From Halarcobacter sp. (GTDB lineage Bacteria > Campylobacterota > Campylobacteria > Campylobacterales > Arcobacteraceae), in NCBI RefSeq assembly GCF_963676935.1, contig NZ_OY781470.1, positions 1,460,680-1,524,679 on the forward strand: DNA of 64,000 bases. Reading direction: 5' to 3'. The notes under the pieces are model-generated. The model was not told the DNA's origin, searched no databases, and saw only the letters and a program-made list of their open reading frames with translations. The translations under genes and the position numbers were made by a program. Below are positions 7,427 through 21,364 of this stretch, piece after piece. The first letter of the stretch is position 1. Each line of letters begins with the position of its first letter.

Positions 7427-8062
7427 TTAAAAACTATCCAGCATTGCAAGTTTTATACACTCTTCAATGGAAGTTTTATTACTAATCTTAAAATCTACAT
7501 AATCTGGTAAATATTTAGCTGTTGTTTTCCCAATTACAATCGCTTTAAAACTTTTATCCCAAGTATAAATTTTAAAAAAACATTCTATACTAGAAGGAGA
7601 AGTAAATATGATAGAAGAGTTTTTTTCTATTTTTTCTTTTATATTATCATTACAAACAGTTTTATAGGTAGTTAATTCATCAATATTTATATTAGCATTT
7701 TTTAAAGTTTCAACTAAATTTGATACTACTTTTAAAGCTCTAATATATAAAACTTTTTTATCTTTTAATAAAGGTATTAATTCTTTAGCAAAATCATTGC
7801 CATGTCCACTTTGACCAATAAATTTAACATTTCCACCCTCTTTATTAATAATTTTTGCAGTTTTTTCTGCAATAGCATAAGAGGGAATATTTTTCCAATC
7901 ATTATTAAAAGAATTTAAAGAGTAAACACCATTTTTTGAAGTAAAAACTAAAGCATCATATTTTTTTAAATCTATATAAGATTTAATATATTCTATTTTA
8001 AAGATCTCAATATTTTGAACATCTTCATGTTTTTGATTACTAAGTAGATATATCTTTGCCAT
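7427..8062 (-). CDS. hemD: Uroporphyrinogen-III synthase
   Basis: HemD closes hydroxymethylbilane to uroporphyrinogen III with inversion of ring D, on the path to heme. The 211-residue protein shows the weakly conserved HemD pattern: DALVFTSKNGVYSL near residue 40, the SSIIFTSPSSIECFF segment around 150, and IVIGKTTAKYL near 175. Length fits (210-260). It ends the unit that starts with the SulP gene 2 bases upstream. Sequence conservation in this family is low, but the TSxNG and TSPS motifs are clear. Confidence 0.85.
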   Translation of the reverse strand: MAKIYLLSNQKHEDVQNIEIFKIEYIKSYIDLKKYDALVFTSKNGVYSLNSFNNDWKNIPSYAIAEKTAKIINKEGGNVKFIGQSGHGNDFAKELIPLLKDKKVLYIRALKVVSNLVETLKNANINIDELTTYKTVCNDNIKEKIEKNSSIIFTSPSSIECFFKIYTWDKSFKAIVIGKTTAKYLPDYVDFKISNKTSIEECIKLAMLDSF

Positions 8063-11723: not shown

Positions 11724-12044
11724 AACATACTCCTTTTGCTTATATAATAAATTAATTCTAGCATACAATTGATTAATTAATAGTCATGGTATAAGAAATA
11801 ATAAGAATAATATTGAAAATCACCTATAATACATAGAAATCAATTCAATAATAATATTGAAATTTTCTGTAGGGTATAACTTTGTGAAATACTGAATGGA
11901 GTATTTATTTATAAAATTATGGAGTTTTATTCAAAAAAGTATTTTTTCTTTTTAAATATTCTTAATATGTAGTTGAAGTTATAGTATTTATAATCTTTTT
12001 ATTATCAAATTCTATAACTTCCAATAAGTATTGGGAAAAAACTA
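11724..12044. other. 321-base intergenic region between hpf and fliD
   Basis: No credible gene. On the minus strand an extended -10 (TGCTAGAAT; hexamer at 11755-11760) would start hpf transcription about 25-30 bases upstream of its ATG. The direct repeat AATAATATTGAAA occurs twice (around 11809 and 11850). Past the fliD stop there is a short hairpin CCAATA/TATTGG (12021-12034) next to an inverted repeat GAAGTTATAG/CTATAACTTC (11975-11984 and 12012-12021). Neither is followed by a T-run on the minus strand, so the fliD terminator is uncertain. Confidence 0.6.
11755..11760 (-). promoter_or_regulatory. Putative extended -10 promoter of hpf
   Basis: TAGAAT is preceded by TGC, giving an extended -10 element, and sits 31 bases upstream of the hpf start. 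No good -35 hexamer is visible, which is usual for sigma70 promoters in this phylum. Confidence 0.5.
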
Positions 12045-13388
12045 TTAATTATCGTTTTTATCCATATTCATTATTAATTTTAATGATGAAAAAGAATTTT
12101 CCATTTGTGTAATAATCACTGTATATGCTGCAAACTGACTTGCTAATTGCTGATACTTAGTATCTATTCTTTCTGTTTCTTCCTCTTGAGAATCATTTAA
12201 ATCTTTAAGTTGCTTAGACAATCTCTCTTCATATGTAGTCATAATTCCATCTAAACTATCCAAATCATCTAAATACGCAGTAATTCTTGTACCAATACCT
12301 TCCTTTTCAGCATAACCTATAAATAACTCTTTTAAATCATCATAATTATCAGTAAGTGCTTCAGATAAATCTCCTGCATCAATCTCCATTCGACCATCTT
12401 TATTAAAAGAGATTCCATAAACAAAAGCATTCTCTTCGTCTGAAAGTCCATATGTATCATAGAACATGTTTTTTATATCACCTACAATACCTCTTAGGGT
12501 ACTAGAATCAGAGATTAGAGCAGGGCTATCCTCACTTCCTCTTGTATAAGAATCAACCAACTCAACTAATTCATTATAAACTGTTGCAATTTTATTAATT
12601 TGTTCTATAACATAAGTATCATCACGCTCAATTGAAATTGATGCATCTCCCTTTTCTGCTGCAGTAATTATTAATCCATTTTCCATTGTAACTTTATTTG
12701 AAGACAAATTATAATCTACACCATCAATTTTAGCTTTCATATTTTGTGCACTTACAACATGGTTTAAGTCATTATCATACCCTAAATTTAAATCACCTGT
12801 TTGTCCAATTGTAATAGCATTATCAAGTCCTGTATCCACACTTTTAATAATCATCCTATAAGAGTTATCACCAACTTGCTCCAAGGATGCTTCAATACTT
12901 GAATTATAATTAATTTGAGTAACTATCTCTTCGTAAGTTTTATCAGTAGTGTCAAAATCATAAGTTGAACTACCTAGTGTAATACTTAATATTCCTGAAT
13001 CCATAGTTGCACTTGTATCTGCAATAATATCTGATTGGTATACATCTTTTGTTGCTAATTGATCAACTGTTACAGCAATAGTACCAGGATTGATATTACT
13101 AGTATCTGCAGCATTAAAACTTACAGCAGTACCTGTTGTAGTTGCTGAAACTTCATCAAATACATTTGTACTTGTATTATATAAATCAAAACCTTCAATC
13201 ACTGATAAAAACTCATCAATTTTTGCTGATATTTCATTTACAGCTTCAATTGTAGCTTCACTTTCTTCAATATTTTTTTCTATAGGAGCTATATAAGCAT
13301 TAGTTTCAGTTTCTTTTAACTTATTAATTAAATCCTGATTTAAATCAACACTTCCTGAACTTCCAAGTCCTAATATTCCATCAGCCAT
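12045..13388 (-). CDS. fliD: Flagellar filament cap protein FliD (HAP2)
   Basis: FliD forms the cap at the filament tip and folds flagellin subunits as they emerge. The 447-residue protein has the N-terminal FliD_N region (LGLGSSGSVDLNQDLINKL, residues 6-110) and a C-terminal FliD_C region with a helical end (DSQEEETERIDTKYQQLASQF) that forms the coiled-coil leg. It starts the 3' half of a late flagellar cluster and is followed upstream by flgK (13-base gap). No signal peptide, as expected for export through the flagellar type III apparatus. Confidence 0.93.
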   Translation of the reverse strand: MADGILGLGSSGSVDLNQDLINKLKETETNAYIAPIEKNIEESEATIEAVNEISAKIDEFLSVIEGFDLYNTSTNVFDEVSATTTGTAVSFNAADTSNINPGTIAVTVDQLATKDVYQSDIIADTSATMDSGILSITLGSSTYDFDTTDKTYEEIVTQINYNSSIEASLEQVGDNSYRMIIKSVDTGLDNAITIGQTGDLNLGYDNDLNHVVSAQNMKAKIDGVDYNLSSNKVTMENGLIITAAEKGDASISIERDDTYVIEQINKIATVYNELVELVDSYTRGSEDSPALISDSSTLRGIVGDIKNMFYDTYGLSDEENAFVYGISFNKDGRMEIDAGDLSEALTDNYDDLKELFIGYAEKEGIGTRITAYLDDLDSLDGIMTTYEERLSKQLKDLNDSQEEETERIDTKYQQLASQFAAYTVIITQMENSFSSLKLIMNMDKNDN

Positions 13389-13401: not shown

Positions 13402-15009
13402 CTACATATTTAAAATAGTTTGCAACATCTCATCAACAGCTGTAATAATTTTAGCATTTGCTTCATAAGCTGCTTGATACTGCATTAAATTAATCATCTC
13501 TTCATCAGAATTAACTTTTGTTAACTTCTCATAAGTAACTGTCATTGAGTTTAATACTGCATCCTGTGCTTCTTTTAAAGATATATTATCTTCATTATTT
13601 ACAGAAACATCTTCAAGTAAATTTTTATAAAACTCTTTAAATGAAGTTACTTCACTACTTCTTGAATCAATATTTATATCTTCAGCCCATTGTAATTGAG
13701 ATATACCTTCTAAATCACTGCCTGAAAGATTAAATGCACTATTTTTTACATATTCAAATGTATTTACACTTGCACCTTTAAACATTGTAGTATCACTATT
13801 TTGAGCATATGCTTCTACAAATGCTTTAGTAAAATCATTTAAGGCTCTTTTATAATATAAAATTTCAGATGTTTCAGATGTTAAATTTTCAGACAAAGAT
13901 TTAAATGAACCACCTGACAGATTTAGTTCATTATTATAAACCACTACACTAACATTATCTGTAGCTTCAACTGAAACATTTGTATCTTTTCCTACAATCG
14001 AACCTGCTACATTAATTTTTAAATCGAAGATATTATCTTCTCCACCCTCAATTGATTCAATTATTAAATTATTAGCTGTATCTAATCGAGCTTGTAAATT
14101 ACCAAATTGTGAATCATTATTTATTTTATCTACAATTTGTTGTTTTAAATCAAAATTTGTTCCACCTGATACATTTGCTGTGATATCTATAGAAATATCA
14201 TTATTTAAAGTTAAAGTGATAACGTCTCCATCACTAAAATTTGTATCATTTAAATCTGTTGTAGTATATATATCTTTTTGGCTAACATATTCCTCTTTTA
14301 CACTAAGCTCGTGGAAACTTGTAGTATTAAAAATTAAATTTTCTCCACCCATTTCTAATACATAATTGCCATTTTCAGTACTTATATCAATATTTCCATA
14401 ATTTGATAATTGATTTTCTAACTGATCTCTTTTATCAAGAAGTTCATTCGATTCACCAGTATCAACCATTTTTTCATTTATATGAGATATTTTCTCTAAT
14501 ATTGAATTTACTTCATCAACTTGATCTTTTAATAAAGATAAATTATCATCTTGAAGCTCTTCCAAATCTGCATAAATACTTTTGATATTATTTATAATCA
14601 TAGTTGACTGACTATTAAGCTCTGCTTTATATGTTGCAGAAGAAGGGTCTCCTCTCAAAGTTTCTGCTGCTGTAAAAAAATTACTTAATGATGTAGAAAA
14701 ACCACTATTGGCAGTCTCTTTAAATATTTGTTCTGCGCTGCTTAATGTACTATTTTGTTGAGTATAATAGTTTGAATAACTATTTTGACTTAAAATTTGT
14801 GTATACAAATAAGGACTAGTAGTTCTATTTACACCATCAAAAGATACACCATTTCCTATATTAAGACGGATACTTGCAACTTCACTTGTTTGGACAACTC
14901 TTTTTTTATAACCTTCCGTATTTTCATTAGCAAGATTATTTGAAGTAACATCTATCGCATATCTTGAAGTTTTAAGACCACTTTGTGCAATATACAATGA
15001 ATCCATCAT
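13402..15009 (-). CDS. flgK: Flagellar hook-associated protein FlgK (HAP1)
   Basis: FlgK is the first of two junction proteins between hook and filament. The 535-residue protein begins with the rod/hook N-terminal motif (SLYIAQSGLKTSRYAIDVTSNNLANENTEGYKK) typical of axial proteins and ends with the matching C-terminal helix (NLMQYQAAYEANAKIITAVDEML). The middle part is an Asn- and Ser-rich variable domain. It lies between fliD and flgL, which is the usual order of junction and cap genes. Confidence 0.94.
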   Translation of the reverse strand: MMDSLYIAQSGLKTSRYAIDVTSNNLANENTEGYKKRVVQTSEVASIRLNIGNGVSFDGVNRTTSPYLYTQILSQNSYSNYYTQQNSTLSSAEQIFKETANSGFSTSLSNFFTAAETLRGDPSSATYKAELNSQSTMIINNIKSIYADLEELQDDNLSLLKDQVDEVNSILEKISHINEKMVDTGESNELLDKRDQLENQLSNYGNIDISTENGNYVLEMGGENLIFNTTSFHELSVKEEYVSQKDIYTTTDLNDTNFSDGDVITLTLNNDISIDITANVSGGTNFDLKQQIVDKINNDSQFGNLQARLDTANNLIIESIEGGEDNIFDLKINVAGSIVGKDTNVSVEATDNVSVVVYNNELNLSGGSFKSLSENLTSETSEILYYKRALNDFTKAFVEAYAQNSDTTMFKGASVNTFEYVKNSAFNLSGSDLEGISQLQWAEDINIDSRSSEVTSFKEFYKNLLEDVSVNNEDNISLKEAQDAVLNSMTVTYEKLTKVNSDEEMINLMQYQAAYEANAKIITAVDEMLQTILNM

Positions 15010-15094: not shown

Positions 15095-16459
15095 CTATCT
15101 CATATAATTAACTAAAGACAATTCATTTACTCTACTAATTGTAGAATATAAAGCTGTATAAGTTATCTCTAAAGCTTTTGCTTGAATACCAAGTTCAGTT
15201 AAATCTGCTGAACCATACTCTTTTTCTAAAATATTTAAATTAGTCAATTTTGTTGAAACAATACTACCATATGATTCTATAGTACTTGTTCTTGTTCCAA
15301 CTAAAGAATGGGAAATATTTTGAGATTCAAAAGCTTTATTCATTCTTGCTAAAACGTCTGAAACAACATTTTTTTGATCAGCTACTGTAATTGTATTACC
15401 AGCATTGTCTTCTAATCTTAAAGCATTAATAACATTATCTAAATCATCAAAAATAGAACGATGAACTTCAAGTTCAGCAACTGATGTATTTAATGCTGTA
15501 AATGTCCCATCCCCATTATCAGTAACACTAATTGGAGTTGTAGAAGTATCCCCATTTATATATAAACTATCAAATGTACCATCATTGTTTGAATCCGTTA
15601 ATTCCCACTCATTACCATCTTTATCCAATATTATATTATTTGAAGTAAAAGTAAAACTATCTCCATCACTTGATATATTTAATACAACTGTAGAGGTATT
15701 ATTAGTCATAGTAACTGTACCATCGCCATTATCCGTAACAGGAATAGGAGTTGTAGAAGTATCACCATTAATATATAAGCCATCAAAAGATGTATCACCA
15801 TTTGTATCAACTAATTGCCAAGTATTTCCATCATCATCCATAACAGTTTCACTTGAATTGAAAGTAAAGGTTTCACCTTGACCATATTTTTGCCCACTAC
15901 TAGCTTCTGTATCCACATAATAAAATGCTTCAATTCCATTTATTCCTTGTGCTGTGTATGTAGCATCTTCAACATTAATTTTTCTTGTTGAATTATCACT
16001 TTGATAAGATATTACTCCTGTAGTAGGGTCTTGACTAAAAGGTGTAAGATTCGTATTTACCCCAGAAAAAAGATATTGACCATCAACTTTTGTATTAGAT
16101 AAAGCTAAAAGTGATTCTTTATAATCTTCCAATTGTGTAGCAATAATCTCTCTTTGATTTTGTCCTGTAGTATCCGTATTAGCTTCAATTAATTCTGAAA
16201 TCATTGATTGAGTACTAGTCTTTATTTGAGCCATGGTATCATCACTTGTTGTATTAAAAGCTTTACTTAAATCAATATGTTGACTGATTGAATCGTAACT
16301 ATTAATATCACCCCTGATACCTAAAATTTTACTATATAAAACAGAATCATCACTTCCATACTCTAAGGCTTCTTGAGTACTAAGTGCCGTATTAACTTTA
16401 TGATTCAATTTATCTAAAAGCGAAAGATTATAGCTTATTGATGAAAGTGACTTAATCAT
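15095..16459 (-). CDS. flgL: Flagellar hook-associated protein FlgL (HAP3)
   Basis: FlgL joins FlgK to the first flagellin. The 454-residue protein shows a flagellin-like N terminus (SLSSISYNLSLLDKLNHKVN..) and a C terminus (LTELGIQAKALEITYTALYSTISRVNELSL) of the D0 type. The FSGVNTNLTPF segment near residue 130 is the usual FlgL turn. The middle holds two copies of a roughly 70-residue module rich in D/G/N/T (see the repeat entry). It lies between flgK and flgE in the axial gene series. Confidence 0.9.
   Translation of the reverse strand: MIKSLSSISYNLSLLDKLNHKVNTALSTQEALEYGSDDSVLYSKILGIRGDINSYDSISQHIDLSKAFNTTSDDTMAQIKTSTQSMISELIEANTDTTGQNQREIIATQLEDYKESLLALSNTKVDGQYLFSGVNTNLTPFSQDPTTGVISYQSDNSTRKINVEDATYTAQGINGIEAFYYVDTEASSGQKYGQGETFTFNSSETVMDDDGNTWQLVDTNGDTSFDGLYINGDTSTTPIPVTDNGDGTVTMTNNTSTVVLNISSDGDSFTFTSNNIILDKDGNEWELTDSNNDGTFDSLYINGDTSTTPISVTDNGDGTFTALNTSVAELEVHRSIFDDLDNVINALRLEDNAGNTITVADQKNVVSDVLARMNKAFESQNISHSLVGTRTSTIESYGSIVSTKLTNLNILEKEYGSADLTELGIQAKALEITYTALYSTISRVNELSLVNYMR
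15465..15880 (-). repeat. Two tandem 70-residue modules inside flgL
   Basis: Protein residues about 194-263 and 264-331 align: FTFNSSETVMDDDGNTWQL / FTFTSNNIILDKDGNEWEL at the start, then FDGLYINGDTSTTPIPVTD / FDSLYINGDTSTTPISVTD, then DNGDGT. The DNA copies (about 207 bases each) are still close. The NxDGxxD pattern looks like a surface-exposed, possibly calcium-binding beta module added to the variable part of FlgL. Confidence 0.85.
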
Positions 16460-16475
16460 GGCTAACTCCTATTTA

Positions 16476-18479
16476 TTATCTTTTAAGTTGAATTAAAGTT
16501 GTTAAAAGTTCATCTGAAGTTGTAATCGATTTTGAATTCGCTTCAAATGCTCTTTGAAAAACCATTAAATTAACTAAACTCTCACTTAGATCTGCTGTAC
16601 TAAGTTCTAAGTTCTTTTCATTTACTGTTGTTGAATTATCATTATTAATTGTATATATTGCTGTACCACTTTTTGTTGTTTCTTTTAATAGATTATCACC
16701 AATTGATTCTAATCCAATATTATTTGCAAACTGAGCAATTGCAATTTGTCCAATTACAAAATCAACACCATCTTGTGTCATAGTTACTAAACCTGTTTCA
16801 TCAACAGATATTTCTCCAAATGATTCATCTGTTAAACCTAAAGAGTCAAGTTTTAATTGTAAAGATGTTCTTGAAGTCTCTTGGTCAACTGTAGAGATTA
16901 TTTGCATAAACTCTGCACCTGCACCAGTATTACCACTTAATTCTAAATTTTTATCTTTTCTATACTCAGTACCATTATCAAAATATCTCATAACACCAGA
17001 GAACTCTTCACCTGTAGTATTTGATTTTATTACTAGTTGTCCATTTACTAATTCAGCTGAAACTTTATCAGTTATTTCAGGTGTAGCAGCTGAATTAATC
17101 TGACTGATTAAACTAGCTACTGCTTGATCATAAGTTAAACCTGTAGCAGTTGTAAGAGTATAATCAGTACCATCTATACTCATAGTATAAGATAATGTAT
17201 CATTAGCATTATCCCAAACTATAGGATTTCCATTATCATCTGCAACAACATCTGCTTCTCTATATACATCATATTGCTTACCTGCAACTGCTGATCTTAA
17301 AGCTCTCATTGCAGAATCAACTGCACCCTGCCCTGTACCTTGAACTGAATCAGTAATTGTAGTAGATGTACCTTGAACCTCTATATTATCTGATGATTCT
17401 GCAATATCACCTATAACAAACTCTTCACCAGGGATAATTGATTCAATCATTATTCGTCCATTTATTACATCTGAAAAGGCAGTTGAAGGGTTATTTGCTG
17501 CTGAAACATCAATAGTATATGCATTTAAACCTGTAATATTTGAAATTCTATCAGCCATAGCTTTATATGTTGCAGCTCTACTTGCTAAAACATCATAATC
17601 CCCTTGACCATCAGAATTTCCATCACCATCTAAATCACCAATACCAGTTCCTACTGCAGTAACAAATTCTGGTGTTGCAATCTCTTGAACATAATCTTGT
17701 GTATATTTATCTCCATTGATAAATACATAGATTTGTTCACCCTCTGCGTTTAATGAACTACTACCTCCATCTGGAAAATCTATTACTGTTCTTTGAGCTT
17801 GAGAAGGTGAAGAAGTTGCTTCTGGATTCTCTGCGTATTTGCTTAAGGCATTATTATAGTTTGTTACTAAAGCTTCAATATCAGAAATCTTTGAAGCATA
17901 GTTTTTAATACCTGAACCTGTTAATACAAGAGAGTCACTTCTTGCACTCTCCGCATAATCAGTCATTTTTGCTGCATAAGTTTCAACTCTTGAAGGAAAT
18001 TTTACAACTTGATTACCTGCAATTTCAGTAAAGAATTGATTAAATGATGTCCAGTTATTATTTGTAGATATTATGTCACTTGATGGATCAACTGGACTCA
18101 TAGCCCATCCTTGAACCTCATAACCATTTGCATCTTGAAGGGTTCCATTATCACCCATCCTCATATTTCCCGCTCTAGTATATAAAGTTTCAGAAGTACC
18201 TGTGGAATCTACATTCCTTACAACAAAGAAACCATCTCCATATAAAGCTAAGTCATATGAAGATTCTGTTCCTTTCATACTTCCTTGAGTATATTGTTTT
18301 TCAGCATTAGTTACTCTAGAACCTTTACCAATACTATCTTGATACATCATATCTGCAAATGAAACCCTAGAGGCTTTATAACCTATTGTATTAACATTCG
18401 CTACATTGTTTGATTCATTATCAATTGCAGATTGAGCCGTTTTTAATCCTGAAATTCCAGTCCATAATGCACCAATCAT
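16476..18479 (-). CDS. flgE: Flagellar hook protein FlgE
   Basis: FlgE polymerises into the hook, the universal joint of the flagellum. The 667-residue protein begins with ALWTGISGLKTAQSAIDNESNNVANVNTIGYKASR, the axial N-terminal motif, and ends with SESLVNLMVFQRAFEANSKSITTSDELL, the matching C-terminal helix. The central part is long, as in other Campylobacterota, where FlgE exceeds the 400 residues of enteric bacteria. flgD (its cap) lies upstream on the same strand. Confidence 0.93.
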   Translation of the reverse strand: MIGALWTGISGLKTAQSAIDNESNNVANVNTIGYKASRVSFADMMYQDSIGKGSRVTNAEKQYTQGSMKGTESSYDLALYGDGFFVVRNVDSTGTSETLYTRAGNMRMGDNGTLQDANGYEVQGWAMSPVDPSSDIISTNNNWTSFNQFFTEIAGNQVVKFPSRVETYAAKMTDYAESARSDSLVLTGSGIKNYASKISDIEALVTNYNNALSKYAENPEATSSPSQAQRTVIDFPDGGSSSLNAEGEQIYVFINGDKYTQDYVQEIATPEFVTAVGTGIGDLDGDGNSDGQGDYDVLASRAATYKAMADRISNITGLNAYTIDVSAANNPSTAFSDVINGRIMIESIIPGEEFVIGDIAESSDNIEVQGTSTTITDSVQGTGQGAVDSAMRALRSAVAGKQYDVYREADVVADDNGNPIVWDNANDTLSYTMSIDGTDYTLTTATGLTYDQAVASLISQINSAATPEITDKVSAELVNGQLVIKSNTTGEEFSGVMRYFDNGTEYRKDKNLELSGNTGAGAEFMQIISTVDQETSRTSLQLKLDSLGLTDESFGEISVDETGLVTMTQDGVDFVIGQIAIAQFANNIGLESIGDNLLKETTKSGTAIYTINNDNSTTVNEKNLELSTADLSESLVNLMVFQRAFEANSKSITTSDELLTTLIQLKR

Positions 18480-18562: not shown

Positions 18563-19321
18563 TTAGTATATCTTTGATACACTCGAATATGGCAAGGTAT
18601 CTGCTTCTTCAGCATAAGTTGTAACATTATTTTGAGTGTATTTCAAATCTATTCCAGAAGAAGCTATTCCACTTCCACCATTTTCAACATACATTTTTAT
18701 AGAATAAGTATCATCAGCATTTTTTGAAACCGCAGCAGATACACCACTTATTGCATTTAATTCTTCTGCAAATTCATCATATGTTTTATCTTTTGTACTA
18801 AGTTTATGCTCTTTTCCGTTAGAATCATAAACAGTGAAATAATCATTTTCATCTGTTGACCCTAAAGAATCAAATTTATCCTCTGTTGACCCTATTATAT
18901 ATTCATCATAATAACCTGTAATTTCATATGCTGTTAAAGTTACATTACCATCTTTCCCTTCAACAGAATAAACTTTATATTGTTTTGGATCTCCTGAATC
19001 ATTTTTAGTTCCTGCTTCAACTAAGTGTCCAATTAAAGAACTAGCATCTGACATAGCACTTTGATTAAGCCCTGCTGTAATATTTTCCATAGCATTTACA
19101 ATTGAAGTGTTTGCTTCTAAAGTTGATAATTGCAATTGTGAATCCATCATTGAAGCAGCATCAACAGGTTTTGTTGGATCTTGCATCTTAAGTTCTGTTA
19201 ACATAAGATTAATAAAATCTTCACTTTTTAACCCCTCTTTTGATACTCCAGTAGTATATGTATTTCCATAAGCATCTGTTGCACTTGTTGTTTTAACACC
19301 ATCAGTTGATGTAGTTGCCAT
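18563..19321 (-). CDS. flgD: Flagellar hook capping protein FlgD
   Basis: FlgD forms the transient cap under which FlgE assembles. The 252-residue protein has the FlgD N-terminal signature (FINLMLTELKMQDPTKPVD, near residue 35) and the following QLSTLE motif; the C-terminal part is a beta domain. The start ATG (19319-19321) has AAGGAG ahead. Its promoter region carries an 18-bp box shared with the response-regulator gene at 20624-21307 (see promoter entries). Confidence 0.93.
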   Translation of the reverse strand: MATTSTDGVKTTSATDAYGNTYTTGVSKEGLKSEDFINLMLTELKMQDPTKPVDAASMMDSQLQLSTLEANTSIVNAMENITAGLNQSAMSDASSLIGHLVEAGTKNDSGDPKQYKVYSVEGKDGNVTLTAYEITGYYDEYIIGSTEDKFDSLGSTDENDYFTVYDSNGKEHKLSTKDKTYDEFAEELNAISGVSAAVSKNADDTYSIKMYVENGGSGIASSGIDLKYTQNNVTTYAEEADTLPYSSVSKIY

Positions 19322-19376: not shown

Positions 19377-19411
19377 ATTATATTATCTAAAAGTAAATAA
19401 AAAGTAACAAA
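19377..19411 (-). promoter_or_regulatory. flgD promoter with the 18-bp box TTTGTTACTTTTTATTTA
   Basis: The box (minus strand, plus coordinates 19394-19411) contains a -35-like TTGTTA. A -10-like TATAAT (19377-19382) begins exactly 22 bases after TTGTTA. GATAAT also lies at the standard 17-base spacing. The same box and the same 22-base distance to a -10-like hexamer are found before the response-regulator gene. Confidence 0.5.
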
Positions 19412-19416
19412 ATGGC

Positions 19417-20649
19417 TTAAAATTGTATTTTAAAAATGTGATAATTTTCATTAAAGTAATAATATAGATTGTATCCATGACGTTTTATAATACTATTTGT
19501 AATATAAAGACCTAAGCCTAGACCTTTATCAATTGATTCATAATCTCTGTTAAAGGGTTTTAAATATTCATCAAAAGGTTTTTTCAATGGTTTTCCATGA
19601 TTTTTAATAATTAAAGAATCCTTACTAATAACAATTTCAGGTTTTCCTTCTGTATTGTATCTCATAGCATTGTCGATAAGATTTTTTAAAGATATTGCAA
19701 AAAGTTCATAATCTACATATATAGTTGTTAAATTTGTATATATATCAACTTGTGATTTATCAATCAATAGAATATCCAAAGATTGATCAAGTAAATCAAT
19801 AACTCTATACTCTTTTCTTTCTAAAGTAATTTGTCCTGATGTTAATTCTTCTAATTTAACAAACTCTTCTAAAAGATACTCTAATCTTGAAAATGCTCTT
19901 TTTAGAATATCTTTTTTCTTTCCCTCTTCTAATGTATCAGAAACTAATTTTCCTTTTGTAATTGGTGTTTTAAGTTCATGCAAAATATTACGTAGAAAGA
20001 GTTTTCTAGAGCTATTTAGATCTCTGATTTTTTCAATAGCATTATTAAATTCATTTGAGACTTGTGCTATTTCATCATCACCATCAATAGTTGTATTAAT
20101 TTCTAAACTACCTTCAGAAAATTTGTTTATTTCATTTTTTAACTTAATCAAAGGCTTTAATTTTTTAAATAAAAAATAATAAAACCAAACTAATAAAATA
20201 TCAATAAAAACTAAGACTATTATCCAAAAGTACTTATTTTTAGATAAAAATGATTTATCAATCAATAATATCTCTAGTGGTTTAGGATTAAAATATATAA
20301 AAACTTCATTATTATATTTATATAAGTTTATTATATCTTCTTTACTATCAAACTTTATTTTTTCTGGCTTTTTACTTATTAAATCATTAAATGAAAGCTC
20401 TGCTAATTGCATATTAAAAGTAGAAATTTTTTCATTTATTATTTTATTTGATAAACCTAATCTAATATCTTTTTCAACTGTTTTAATAACTGATATATAT
20501 TTTTCAGATAATAAAGCTTGATAATTTTTATAATCAAATGAAAACTGCAGATAAATCAATGAATTTATAATTATAAAAATTAAAAAGAAAAATAGTGTTA
20601 TTTTAAAAAAGATAGAATTTCTTTTATCCATTAACCAGTTTATAGCCAA
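19417..20649 (-). CDS. Membrane sensor histidine kinase (ArsS/CprS-like)
   Basis: The 410-residue protein has one N-terminal membrane segment (about 14-35), a periplasmic sensor part of about 100 residues and a second segment (about 140-160). A HAMP-like linker, the H-box (ILHELKTPITKGK, about 223-235) and an HATPase domain with N-box (NLIDNAMRYN) and G-box (GLGLGLYI) follow. The H-box sequence is that of the acid-sensing ArsS group of Campylobacterota. The start overlaps the end of the response-regulator gene by 26 bases, so the pair is translationally coupled. The stimulus is unknown. Confidence 0.9.
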   Translation of the reverse strand: MAINWLMDKRNSIFFKITLFFFLIFIIINSLIYLQFSFDYKNYQALLSEKYISVIKTVEKDIRLGLSNKIINEKISTFNMQLAELSFNDLISKKPEKIKFDSKEDIINLYKYNNEVFIYFNPKPLEILLIDKSFLSKNKYFWIIVLVFIDILLVWFYYFLFKKLKPLIKLKNEINKFSEGSLEINTTIDGDDEIAQVSNEFNNAIEKIRDLNSSRKLFLRNILHELKTPITKGKLVSDTLEEGKKKDILKRAFSRLEYLLEEFVKLEELTSGQITLERKEYRVIDLLDQSLDILLIDKSQVDIYTNLTTIYVDYELFAISLKNLIDNAMRYNTEGKPEIVISKDSLIIKNHGKPLKKPFDEYLKPFNRDYESIDKGLGLGLYITNSIIKRHGYNLYYYFNENYHIFKIQF

Positions 20650-21307
20650 CTCCTCTTATTGAATGTATATATTTTGGTTTTTTAGAATTTTCTTCAATTT
20701 TATTTCTAACTCTACCTATTAATACATCAATACTCTTATAACTACTTTCATACTTAATTGAATCAACATTGGACAACAACTCTTCACGGGATACAACAAA
20801 ACCTGCTTTTTTTATCAAATATGCTAAGATATGATATTCTGCATTAGTAAGATTTAAAACTTTTTCTTCTTTTAAAATCTCCATTTTTTCTTCATTTAAA
20901 ACAAAAATAGCTGTGTTGTCTTTTTTATTTTCATCCGATTCATCAATGTTGCATCTTCTAAGTATAGATTTAATCCTAAATATTAATTCTTGGGTGTCAT
21001 AAGGTTTTGGCATATAATCATCAGCACCTAAACTAAAGCATGCAGCTTTATCACTTATATTTGAACGTGCACTAGAAATAATAATTGGTGTACTATAGTG
21101 TTCACGTATCATTCTACACACATCTATACCATCTATTTCAGGTAAAGATAAATCTAAAATAATTAAATCATATTTCTTTAATCTAAGTGCTGATATTGCT
21201 AATTCTGGGGAGTCATAGTTTGTTACATTTATATTATGCTGTTTTAAATAATCTATTAAAATATCAGCTAATTCTAAATCATCTTCAATCATCAATATTT
21301 CTATCAA
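20624..21307 (-). CDS. OmpR-type response regulator
   Basis: The protein has a receiver domain (MIEDDLELA; phosphoacceptor D in LIILDLSLPEIDG; lysine in MPKPYD) and a winged-helix DNA-binding domain (GFVVSREELL...IHSIRGVGYKL). I choose TTG 21305-21307 as start (227 residues), because AAGGA lies 6 bases ahead and the protein then opens as LIEILMIEDD. A longer version from TTG 21341-21343 would begin upstream of the putative transcription start. The partner kinase gene overlaps its 3' end. The gene's own promoter carries the box also found before flgD, which suggests autoregulation and control of the flgD operon. Confidence 0.9.
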   Translation of the reverse strand: MIEILMIEDDLELADILIDYLKQHNINVTNYDSPELAISALRLKKYDLIILDLSLPEIDGIDVCRMIREHYSTPIIISSARSNISDKAACFSLGADDYMPKPYDTQELIFRIKSILRRCNIDESDENKKDNTAIFVLNEEKMEILKEEKVLNLTNAEYHILAYLIKKAGFVVSREELLSNVDSIKYESSYKSIDVLIGRVRNKIEENSKKPKYIHSIRGVGYKLVNG

Positions 21308-21329
21308 CCTATATCCTTTTATAGAAATA

Positions 21330-21364
21330 ATTTTAGTGAACAAGACTAAATAAAAAGTAACAAA
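21330..21364 (-). promoter_or_regulatory. Response-regulator promoter with the shared 18-bp box
   Basis: TTTGTTACTTTTTATTTA (plus coordinates 21347-21364) is identical to the box before flgD. A TAAAAT hexamer (21330-21335) begins 22 bases after TTGTTA, as in the flgD copy. A start of transcription near 21323 would leave a leader of about 16 bases before TTG 21307. Confidence 0.5.

What the first reader, a model, noticed from the sequence alone, without database searches (positions are those of the whole stretch)
19377..21364. Same 18-bp box at the same promoter distance before flgD and before a response-regulator gene
TTTGTTACTTTTTATTTA occurs upstream of flgD (plus coordinates 19394-19411) and of the OmpR-type regulator (21347-21364). 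In both, a -10-like hexamer (TATAAT, TAAAAT) begins exactly 22 bases after TTGTTA. The two copies flank the two-component genes. This suggests that the regulator controls itself and the flgD-flgE-flgL-flgK-fliD series, linking an ArsS-like sensor to hook assembly. An 18-base repeat can arise by chance in AT-rich DNA, so the shared spacing carries the weight.
Basis: partly seen in the sequence, partly recalled or inferred. Interest (0 to 1): 0.55.

Follow-up and report, generated by a model that had tools for sequence, protein, structure and literature searches.

The report
Regulator switch for itself and hook
The repeated box looks like a real, evolutionarily conserved control site: a sensor-regulator pair appears to switch on its own gene, a block of flagellar hook genes and, in related bacteria, a calcium-binding-type protein gene, giving a testable candidate regulator in a group whose flagellar control is described as unknown.

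Summary
Comparison redefines the box as TGTTAC-N5-ATTTAC-N10-TAWAAT: two half-sites 11 bp apart, ending 10 nt before the -10, an OmpR/PhoB-type layout. It precedes the regulator gene in 19 of 20 fetched loci with at most 2 mismatches. A model built from 17 of those promoters, window excluded, finds sites before flgD (14/18 loci), flgE (13/18) and an EF-hand gene (21/23), but 0 of 107 control regions. The 79 more distant regulator homologues checked lack it. The sensor passes the ArsS-family cut-off. Binding, signal and direction of control are inferred.

The parts
19377..19409 (-). flgD operator-promoter: TGTTAC (19409-19404), ATTTAC (19398-19393), -10 TATAAT (19382-19377)
   Evidence: 0 mismatches to the consensus; model score 27.8; also 0 mismatches in G010, G014, G006
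21330..21362 (-). Regulator's own operator-promoter: TGTTAC (21362-21357), ATTTAG (21351-21346), -10 TAAAAT (21335-21330)
   Evidence: 2 mismatches; score 20.0; conserved before the regulator in the orthologous loci
20624..21307 (-). OmpR/PhoB-type response regulator; likely start TTG at 21307 (the longer ORF from 21343 would run into the promoter)
   Evidence: PF00072 and PF00486 over cut-off
19417..20631 (-). ArsS-family sensor histidine kinase (likely ATG at 20631)
   Evidence: NF038389, 375 bits against cut-off 250; HAMP and HATPase_c over cut-off, HisKA just under it (25.4 against 26.9)
18563..19321 (-). flgD, hook-capping protein, first gene of the hook block
   Evidence: PF03963 over cut-off
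16476..18479 (-). flgE, hook protein
   Evidence: TIGR03506 over cut-off, PF06429 over cut-off
15095..16459 (-). flgL, hook-filament junction protein
   Evidence: PF00669 just over cut-off, 29.5 against 26.6; position in the block
13402..15009 (-). flgK, hook-filament junction protein
   Evidence: PF22638 and PF06429 over cut-off
12045..13388 (-). fliD, filament cap
   Evidence: PF07195 and PF02465 over cut-off
12009..12039 (-). Decayed third site: the -10 region is kept and the half-sites are degraded
   Evidence: Aligns to the intact EF-hand promoter of G010
11954..11991 (-). Remnant of the 5' end of the EF-hand gene; no EF-hand homologue of this family found elsewhere in this genome
   Evidence: Alignment to G010; 0 matches in G000 at E 1e-6

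Best explanation
The two boxes are operators of the OmpR-type regulator encoded between them. When its ArsS-family sensor phosphorylates it, the regulator binds head-to-tail to TGTTAC-N5-ATTTAC just upstream of the -10 and recruits RNA polymerase. It thereby raises its own expression (positive feedback) and transcribes the block flgD-flgE-flgL-flgK-fliD. In relatives the same regulator also drives an EF-hand (calcium-binding type) gene, which is probably the older target, the hook block having come under this control later. In this genome no second hook set was found, so hook building, and through it the flagellum, should depend on the sensor's signal. Shown here: the sites, their conservation, their restriction to these promoters among the regions tested, and the co-occurrence of regulator, hook block and EF-hand gene. 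Inferred: binding, activation rather than repression, operon structure, the order of evolution and the nature of the signal.
For: Exact repeat in two promoters only. In 17 regulator promoters the half-sites and -10 are 97% conserved on average against 68% for the other columns, though these columns were picked from the same sequences. Independent prediction: 21/23 EF-hand, 14/18 flgD and 13/18 flgE upstream regions at p<=0.01; 0/107 controls. Of the 27 sites with at most 1 mismatch that one search lists in 22 regulator-bearing genomes, 26 are at these promoters: 18 regulator (which shaped the consensus), 4 flgD, 4 EF-hand. The hook block occurs in 17 of 23 genomes with the regulator and 0 of 81 without (p=7e-15); the EF-hand gene in 20 of 23 against 7 of 81 (p=1e-12; genomes are related, so these p values are too strong). 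The recognition-helix region is near-invariant in 14 orthologues and different in 8 paralogues. In G060 the regulator gene is split and no site is left before it.
Against: No binding or expression data. Four of 18 flgD and five of 18 flgE regions lack a significant site; in G007 neither reaches p<=0.01 (0.245 and 0.03). In seven genomes the EF-hand gene occurs without a detected orthologue of this regulator; four of these have a site at p<=0.01 (two of them weak, 4 mismatches), one at p=0.017, one was not tested and G024 has none, so another regulator may read a similar sequence there. Two regulator-less genomes (G080, G081) keep a perfect site after ftsK, read here as a deletion scar. One search lists 4 further sites with 1 mismatch in regulator-less genomes. 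No site of score 12 or more in the main flagellar cluster of G000; flagellin loci are without a site but for one weak hit.
Confidence: 0.79

Rival explanations
1. The same sites are operators, but the regulator represses: bound next to the -10 it blocks RNA polymerase, and the signal relieves repression of the hook block.
For: The sites abut the -10; comparison cannot tell the direction of control.
Against: A fixed 10-nt distance on one strand fits an activator; sites of HP1043 that overlap promoters are called typical of activators (passage of PMC8345958).
Confidence: 0.12
2. The box is bound by a different OmpR-family regulator of the cell, and the neighbouring two-component pair is only one of its targets.
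For: Seven genomes carry the EF-hand gene without a detected orthologue of this regulator, four of them with a site at p<=0.01. A similar site precedes a DUF748 gene, also in G013, which lacks the regulator.
Against: Box and regulator orthologue go together, and the widespread paralogue of about 55% identity has a different recognition helix and, by eye, no such site in the 8 upstream regions printed.
Confidence: 0.08
3. Chance, or a recently duplicated promoter without regulatory meaning, in AT-rich DNA.
For: Loose matches are as common as for the reversed pattern.
Against: Conservation at the same places across several genera, with variable spacers and clean controls.
Confidence: 0.01

Closest known systems
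BfmRS and efhP of Pseudomonas aeruginosa (PMC8025907, passages read)
   Same: A response regulator whose three strongest ChIP regions include its own promoter and that of efhP, an EF-hand gene
   Different: No flagellar hook block among those three; homology between the systems not tested here
HP1043 of Helicobacter pylori (PMC8345958, abstract and passages read)
   Same: OmpR/PhoB-family protein binding two hexamers with a 5-bp spacer that overlap promoters
   Different: Essential orphan acting without phosphorylation; hexamer TTTAAG; other targets
ArsRS of Helicobacter pylori (recalled)
   Same: The sensor here belongs to NCBI's ArsS family
   Different: ArsRS is known for acid response; no published operator was compared
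PhoB and the pho box (recalled)
   Same: Two direct repeats, 11-bp period, about 10 nt before the -10 in place of a -35
   Different: Different half-site sequence and targets
OmpR-type flagellar regulators FtcR, Rem, LafR (recalled; only a search listing seen)
   Same: An OmpR-type regulator dedicated to flagellar genes
   Different: Here only a hook-to-cap block plus an EF-hand gene, with a linked ArsS-type sensor
FlgS/FlgR with RpoN in Campylobacter and Helicobacter (named in PMC2147049, passages read)
   Same: A two-component system controlling hook genes
   Different: FlgR is an NtrC-type sigma-54 activator (recalled); no -24/-12 site lies near the hook block

Membership tests
OmpR/PhoB-family response regulator | Receiver domain plus winged-helix Trans_reg_C domain | tested here: met
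   PF00072 and PF00486 over cut-off
OmpR/PhoB-family response regulator | Binds tandem half-sites about one helical turn apart | not testable with these tools
   Such sites exist with an 11-bp period; binding not tested
ArsS-family sensor kinase | Score over the NCBIfam NF038389 cut-off | tested here: met
   375 bits against 250
ArsRS acid-response system | Responds to acid | not testable with these tools
   No experiment; the predicted sensor model gave kinase-core and phytochrome-type matches, none informative for the sensor domain, in the 50 rows shown
FlgSR/RpoN flagellar control | -24/-12 promoter before hook genes | tested here: not met
   Two window matches with 1 mismatch, at 7788 and 48328, neither near flgD-fliD; 1.4 expected by chance
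Dual (polar plus lateral) flagellar system | Second export apparatus (second FlhA) | tested here: not met
   One FlhA over the cut-off in 30 of 32 genomes, none in G060 and G100; a second match in G080 is under the cut-off
XopAW-family EF-hand protein (EF-hand gene of relatives) | Score over the NF041410 cut-off | tested here: not met
   59-71 bits against 120 in 4 proteins; EF-hand Pfam domains are met

The most novel reading that the evidence does not exclude
In 11 of the 17 genomes with this block a single flagellar export apparatus serves two alternative hook sets, one of them placed by a two-component system in a regulon with an EF-hand protein. The cell would then exchange its hook, and perhaps export the EF-hand protein through the same machine, in response to a signal such as calcium. 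In the lineage of this window the signal-controlled hook set has replaced the ordinary one.
Probability: 0.3. Interest if true: 0.78.

Novelty: new variant of a known kind. Interest (0 to 1): 0.6.

Why it matters
Passages of two papers state that Arcobacter flagellar genes must be under a different, unknown regulation (PMC2147049, PMC9321776), the second adding that no DNA-binding regulator was found in or near the flagellar loci. If this window is from that group, as I infer, here is a candidate with its operator, its target promoters and relatives in which the wiring differs, so for these lineages the question can be tested directly. It also suggests how a structural gene block can be captured by an existing regulon.

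Tried and rejected
TTGTTA as a -35 element: rejected, it lies 22 nt from the -10. Regulator as general flagellar master: no site of score 12 or more in the three stretches (60 kb) of the G000 main flagellar cluster; in G006 one of 12.4 in 39 kb (L296, not followed). In 30 flagellin-type loci of 12 genomes one weak hit (13.9, L340 of G006, not followed). Ribosome-hibernation gene (HPF) as the third target: rejected, 0 of 12 upstream regions; the third site belongs to the EF-hand gene before it. A DUF748 gene as a fourth target: a similar site in G000 and G010 (18.6), weaker in G014 (12.6) and G006 (3.5), but also in regulator-less G013 (16.2), so probably not of this regulon (9 of 18 loci had a readable upstream region). 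The site at G000:C1:198677 lies at an overlap of coding genes and is rejected. RpoN absence as an explanation: rejected, G000 has a sigma-54 domain gene. Sensor signal from structure: the predicted model (pLDDT 84, pTM 0.55) gave matches to kinase cores in the 50 rows shown and nothing informative for the sensor domain.

Rows dropped and limits. Promoter model: 17 of 20 regulator promoters used (L147, L153, L155 repeat others); the window's own was left out. EF-hand test: 23 of 30 loci (L275-L281 left out as fragments or repeats; one search shows sites of 1 or 2 mismatches in L276-L279 and L281, 4 in L275, none in L280). The 18 flgD loci include G079 twice (17 genomes). Several of the 107 control regions are coding sequence. 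The FlgD tree leaves out L182, which gave no row, and its labels rest partly on gene neighbourhood. The match list is capped, so cut-off fragments such as that of G119 may be missed in other genomes. One search keeps the best 80 of 213.

Full report
Observation. The two boxes, their strand and the equal spacing are as described. They are the only exact copies in the genome (0.009 expected from base composition). Loose matching is uninformative: 161 places against 146 for the reversed pattern at 3 mismatches.

What is conserved. I searched 104 genomes of the window's family for the regulator. A close orthologue (60% identity or more) is listed in 22, counting G060 with a split gene; G119 carries a copy cut by a contig end, which makes 23. 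In 20 fetched loci (19 genomes, the window's not among them) the regulator promoter follows TGTTAC-N5-ATTTAC-N10-TATAAT with at most 2 mismatches in 19 and with 3 in G006; common variants are TGATAC and TAAAAT. The window's own has 2. Of the other three regulator genomes, G060 has no site left, G119 is cut before its promoter, and in G101 the regulator follows the EF-hand gene, with a site of 3 mismatches before that gene. In 17 distinct promoters the specified columns are 97% conserved on average and the others 68%, but the columns were picked from these same sequences. Of the 80 loci kept from named contigs (of 213 found), L003 (74% identical, with hook genes) has a perfect site, and the other 79, from Campylobacter, Sulfurimonas, Sulfurovum and others, have 4 mismatches or more in the 160 nt before the regulator. 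The recognition-helix region S-I/V-DVLIGRxR is kept in the 14 orthologues and absent from the 8 paralogues printed.

Targets. In 15 loci a third site with at most 2 mismatches follows fliD, or follows the sensor gene where no hook genes lie between. It precedes a gene for a protein of roughly 210-310 residues; the four examined have EF-hand domains. Using a model built from regulator promoters alone, without the window's, I scored upstream regions against dinucleotide shuffles: EF-hand 21 of 23 at p<=0.01; flgD 14 of 18; flgE 13 of 18; der, flgK, flgL, fliD, ftsK, sensor and HPF together 0 of 107 (several of these control regions are coding). Half-sites without the -10 gave 13 of 18 and 12 of 18, with 3 of 107 controls. 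Seventeen of 18 loci have a significant site at flgD or flgE; G007 has neither. In this window only flgD has the site, not flgE.

Genome-wide. With up to 2 mismatches the full pattern finds 89 places in 22 regulator-bearing genomes against 35 for the reversed pattern, and 68 against 40 in 22 genomes without the regulator; in G000 alone it is 4 against 4 (sums of the tables). At 0-1 mismatch one search lists 27 sites, of which 26 are at regulator (18), flgD (4) or EF-hand (4) promoters; the regulator ones shaped the consensus. One search lists 6 such sites, of which 2 (G080, G081) follow ftsK exactly where the regulator would be, best read as scars of deletion.

The hook block. FlgD of this block differs from the ordinary FlgD of the family; the two form separate groups in a tree of 29 rows (100/100). 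The block occurs in 17 of 104 genomes, all with the regulator. Eleven of the 17 also have an ordinary flgD; six do not (G000, G006, G010, G014, G060, G119). I read 60 kb of the main flagellar cluster in G000 and 39 kb on one side of FlhA in G006 and found no FlgD or FlgL, and only rod-type FlgE homologues. In a flagellin-domain search the block's FlgL is the only FlgL-like match in G000, G006 and G010, the other three in each looking like flagellins. FlhA is never duplicated over the cut-off: one in 30 of 32 genomes, none in G060 and G100. So this is an alternative hook set, not a second complete flagellum. In G060, without FlhA, the regulator gene is split and no site is left before it. In G000, G010, G014 and G006, which lack an ordinary flgD, the flgD site is perfect; in G060 and G119, which also lack it, the flgD site is weaker (scores 16.0 and 15.3). 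In the remaining genomes it is weaker or not significant at flgD and, but for G007, significant at flgE.

EF-hand gene. Found in 27 of 104 genomes, 20 of the 23 with the regulator and 7 of the 81 others (Fisher p=1e-12, too strong because the genomes are related). G000, G014 and G077 lack it. In the window its place after fliD holds a degraded site and a short 5' remnant that align to the intact copy of G010. In genus g6 seven genomes have the gene; only G119 shows this regulator, on another contig. Of the seven genomes without a detected regulator, four have a site at p<=0.01 (G116, G117, G118, G121), G020 one at p=0.017, G120 was not tested (4 mismatches), and G024 has none. That the EF-hand gene is the older target is inferred from the six regulator genomes without a hook block (G026, G062, G071, G097, G100, G101), which all have it; loss of the block there is an alternative.

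Mechanism. The site's fixed place on one strand, 10 nt before the -10, fits an activator that substitutes for a -35. By recall this is the layout of the pho box, and passages of PMC8345958 describe two hexamers with 5-bp spacing overlapping promoters for HP1043 as typical of activators. BfmR of Pseudomonas aeruginosa offers a parallel: its three strongest ChIP regions include its own promoter and that of the EF-hand gene efhP (passages of PMC8025907). Signal, phosphorylation and direction are inference. Calcium is a guess from the EF-hand target only.

Context. Passages of PMC2147049 and PMC9321776 say Arcobacter lacks RpoN and FliA, and the second also FlgRS, and that its flagellar regulators are unknown. 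Contrary to the first point, G000 and 12 of the other 14 genomes of this family tested carry a sigma-54 domain protein, so I do not use RpoN absence as an argument. I did not test FliA. Among the titles shown by the literature searches (part of the hits) none is about this regulator or hook block; I saw listings and starts of abstracts only, apart from the passages cited.

Noticed in passing
G000:C1:3062418-3062882 and 12 of 14 other family genomes tested: A sigma-54 (RpoN) DNA-binding domain protein is present, although PMC9321776 reports RpoN lost in all Arcobacter species.
   Followed up: no
L246 (G080), L247 (G081), L251 (G063): A regulator-type site (perfect in G080 and G081, 2 mismatches in G063) remains after ftsK although regulator, sensor and hook block are not there: apparent deletion scars.
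   Followed up: partly
L294:8381-8413 (G000:C1:1234380) and L295:7533-7565 (G010): A related direct-repeat site (TGTTAT-N5-ATTAAC) 24-25 nt before a DUF748 gene, with a similar one in regulator-less G013: perhaps another regulator's site.
   Followed up: partly
L245 (G060): Regulator gene split by about 1.5 kb of other DNA in a genome without a detected FlhA.
   Followed up: no
L154 and L155 (G079 contigs C8 and C11): The regulator, hook block and EF-hand gene appear on two contigs with identical scores: a real duplication or an assembly effect.
   Followed up: no
L233:1707-2593 and orthologues: By eye the EF-hand protein shows no signal peptide and has a conserved C-terminal end (S-x-F-x-Y-A type), which may point to an unusual export or assembly role.
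   Followed up: no
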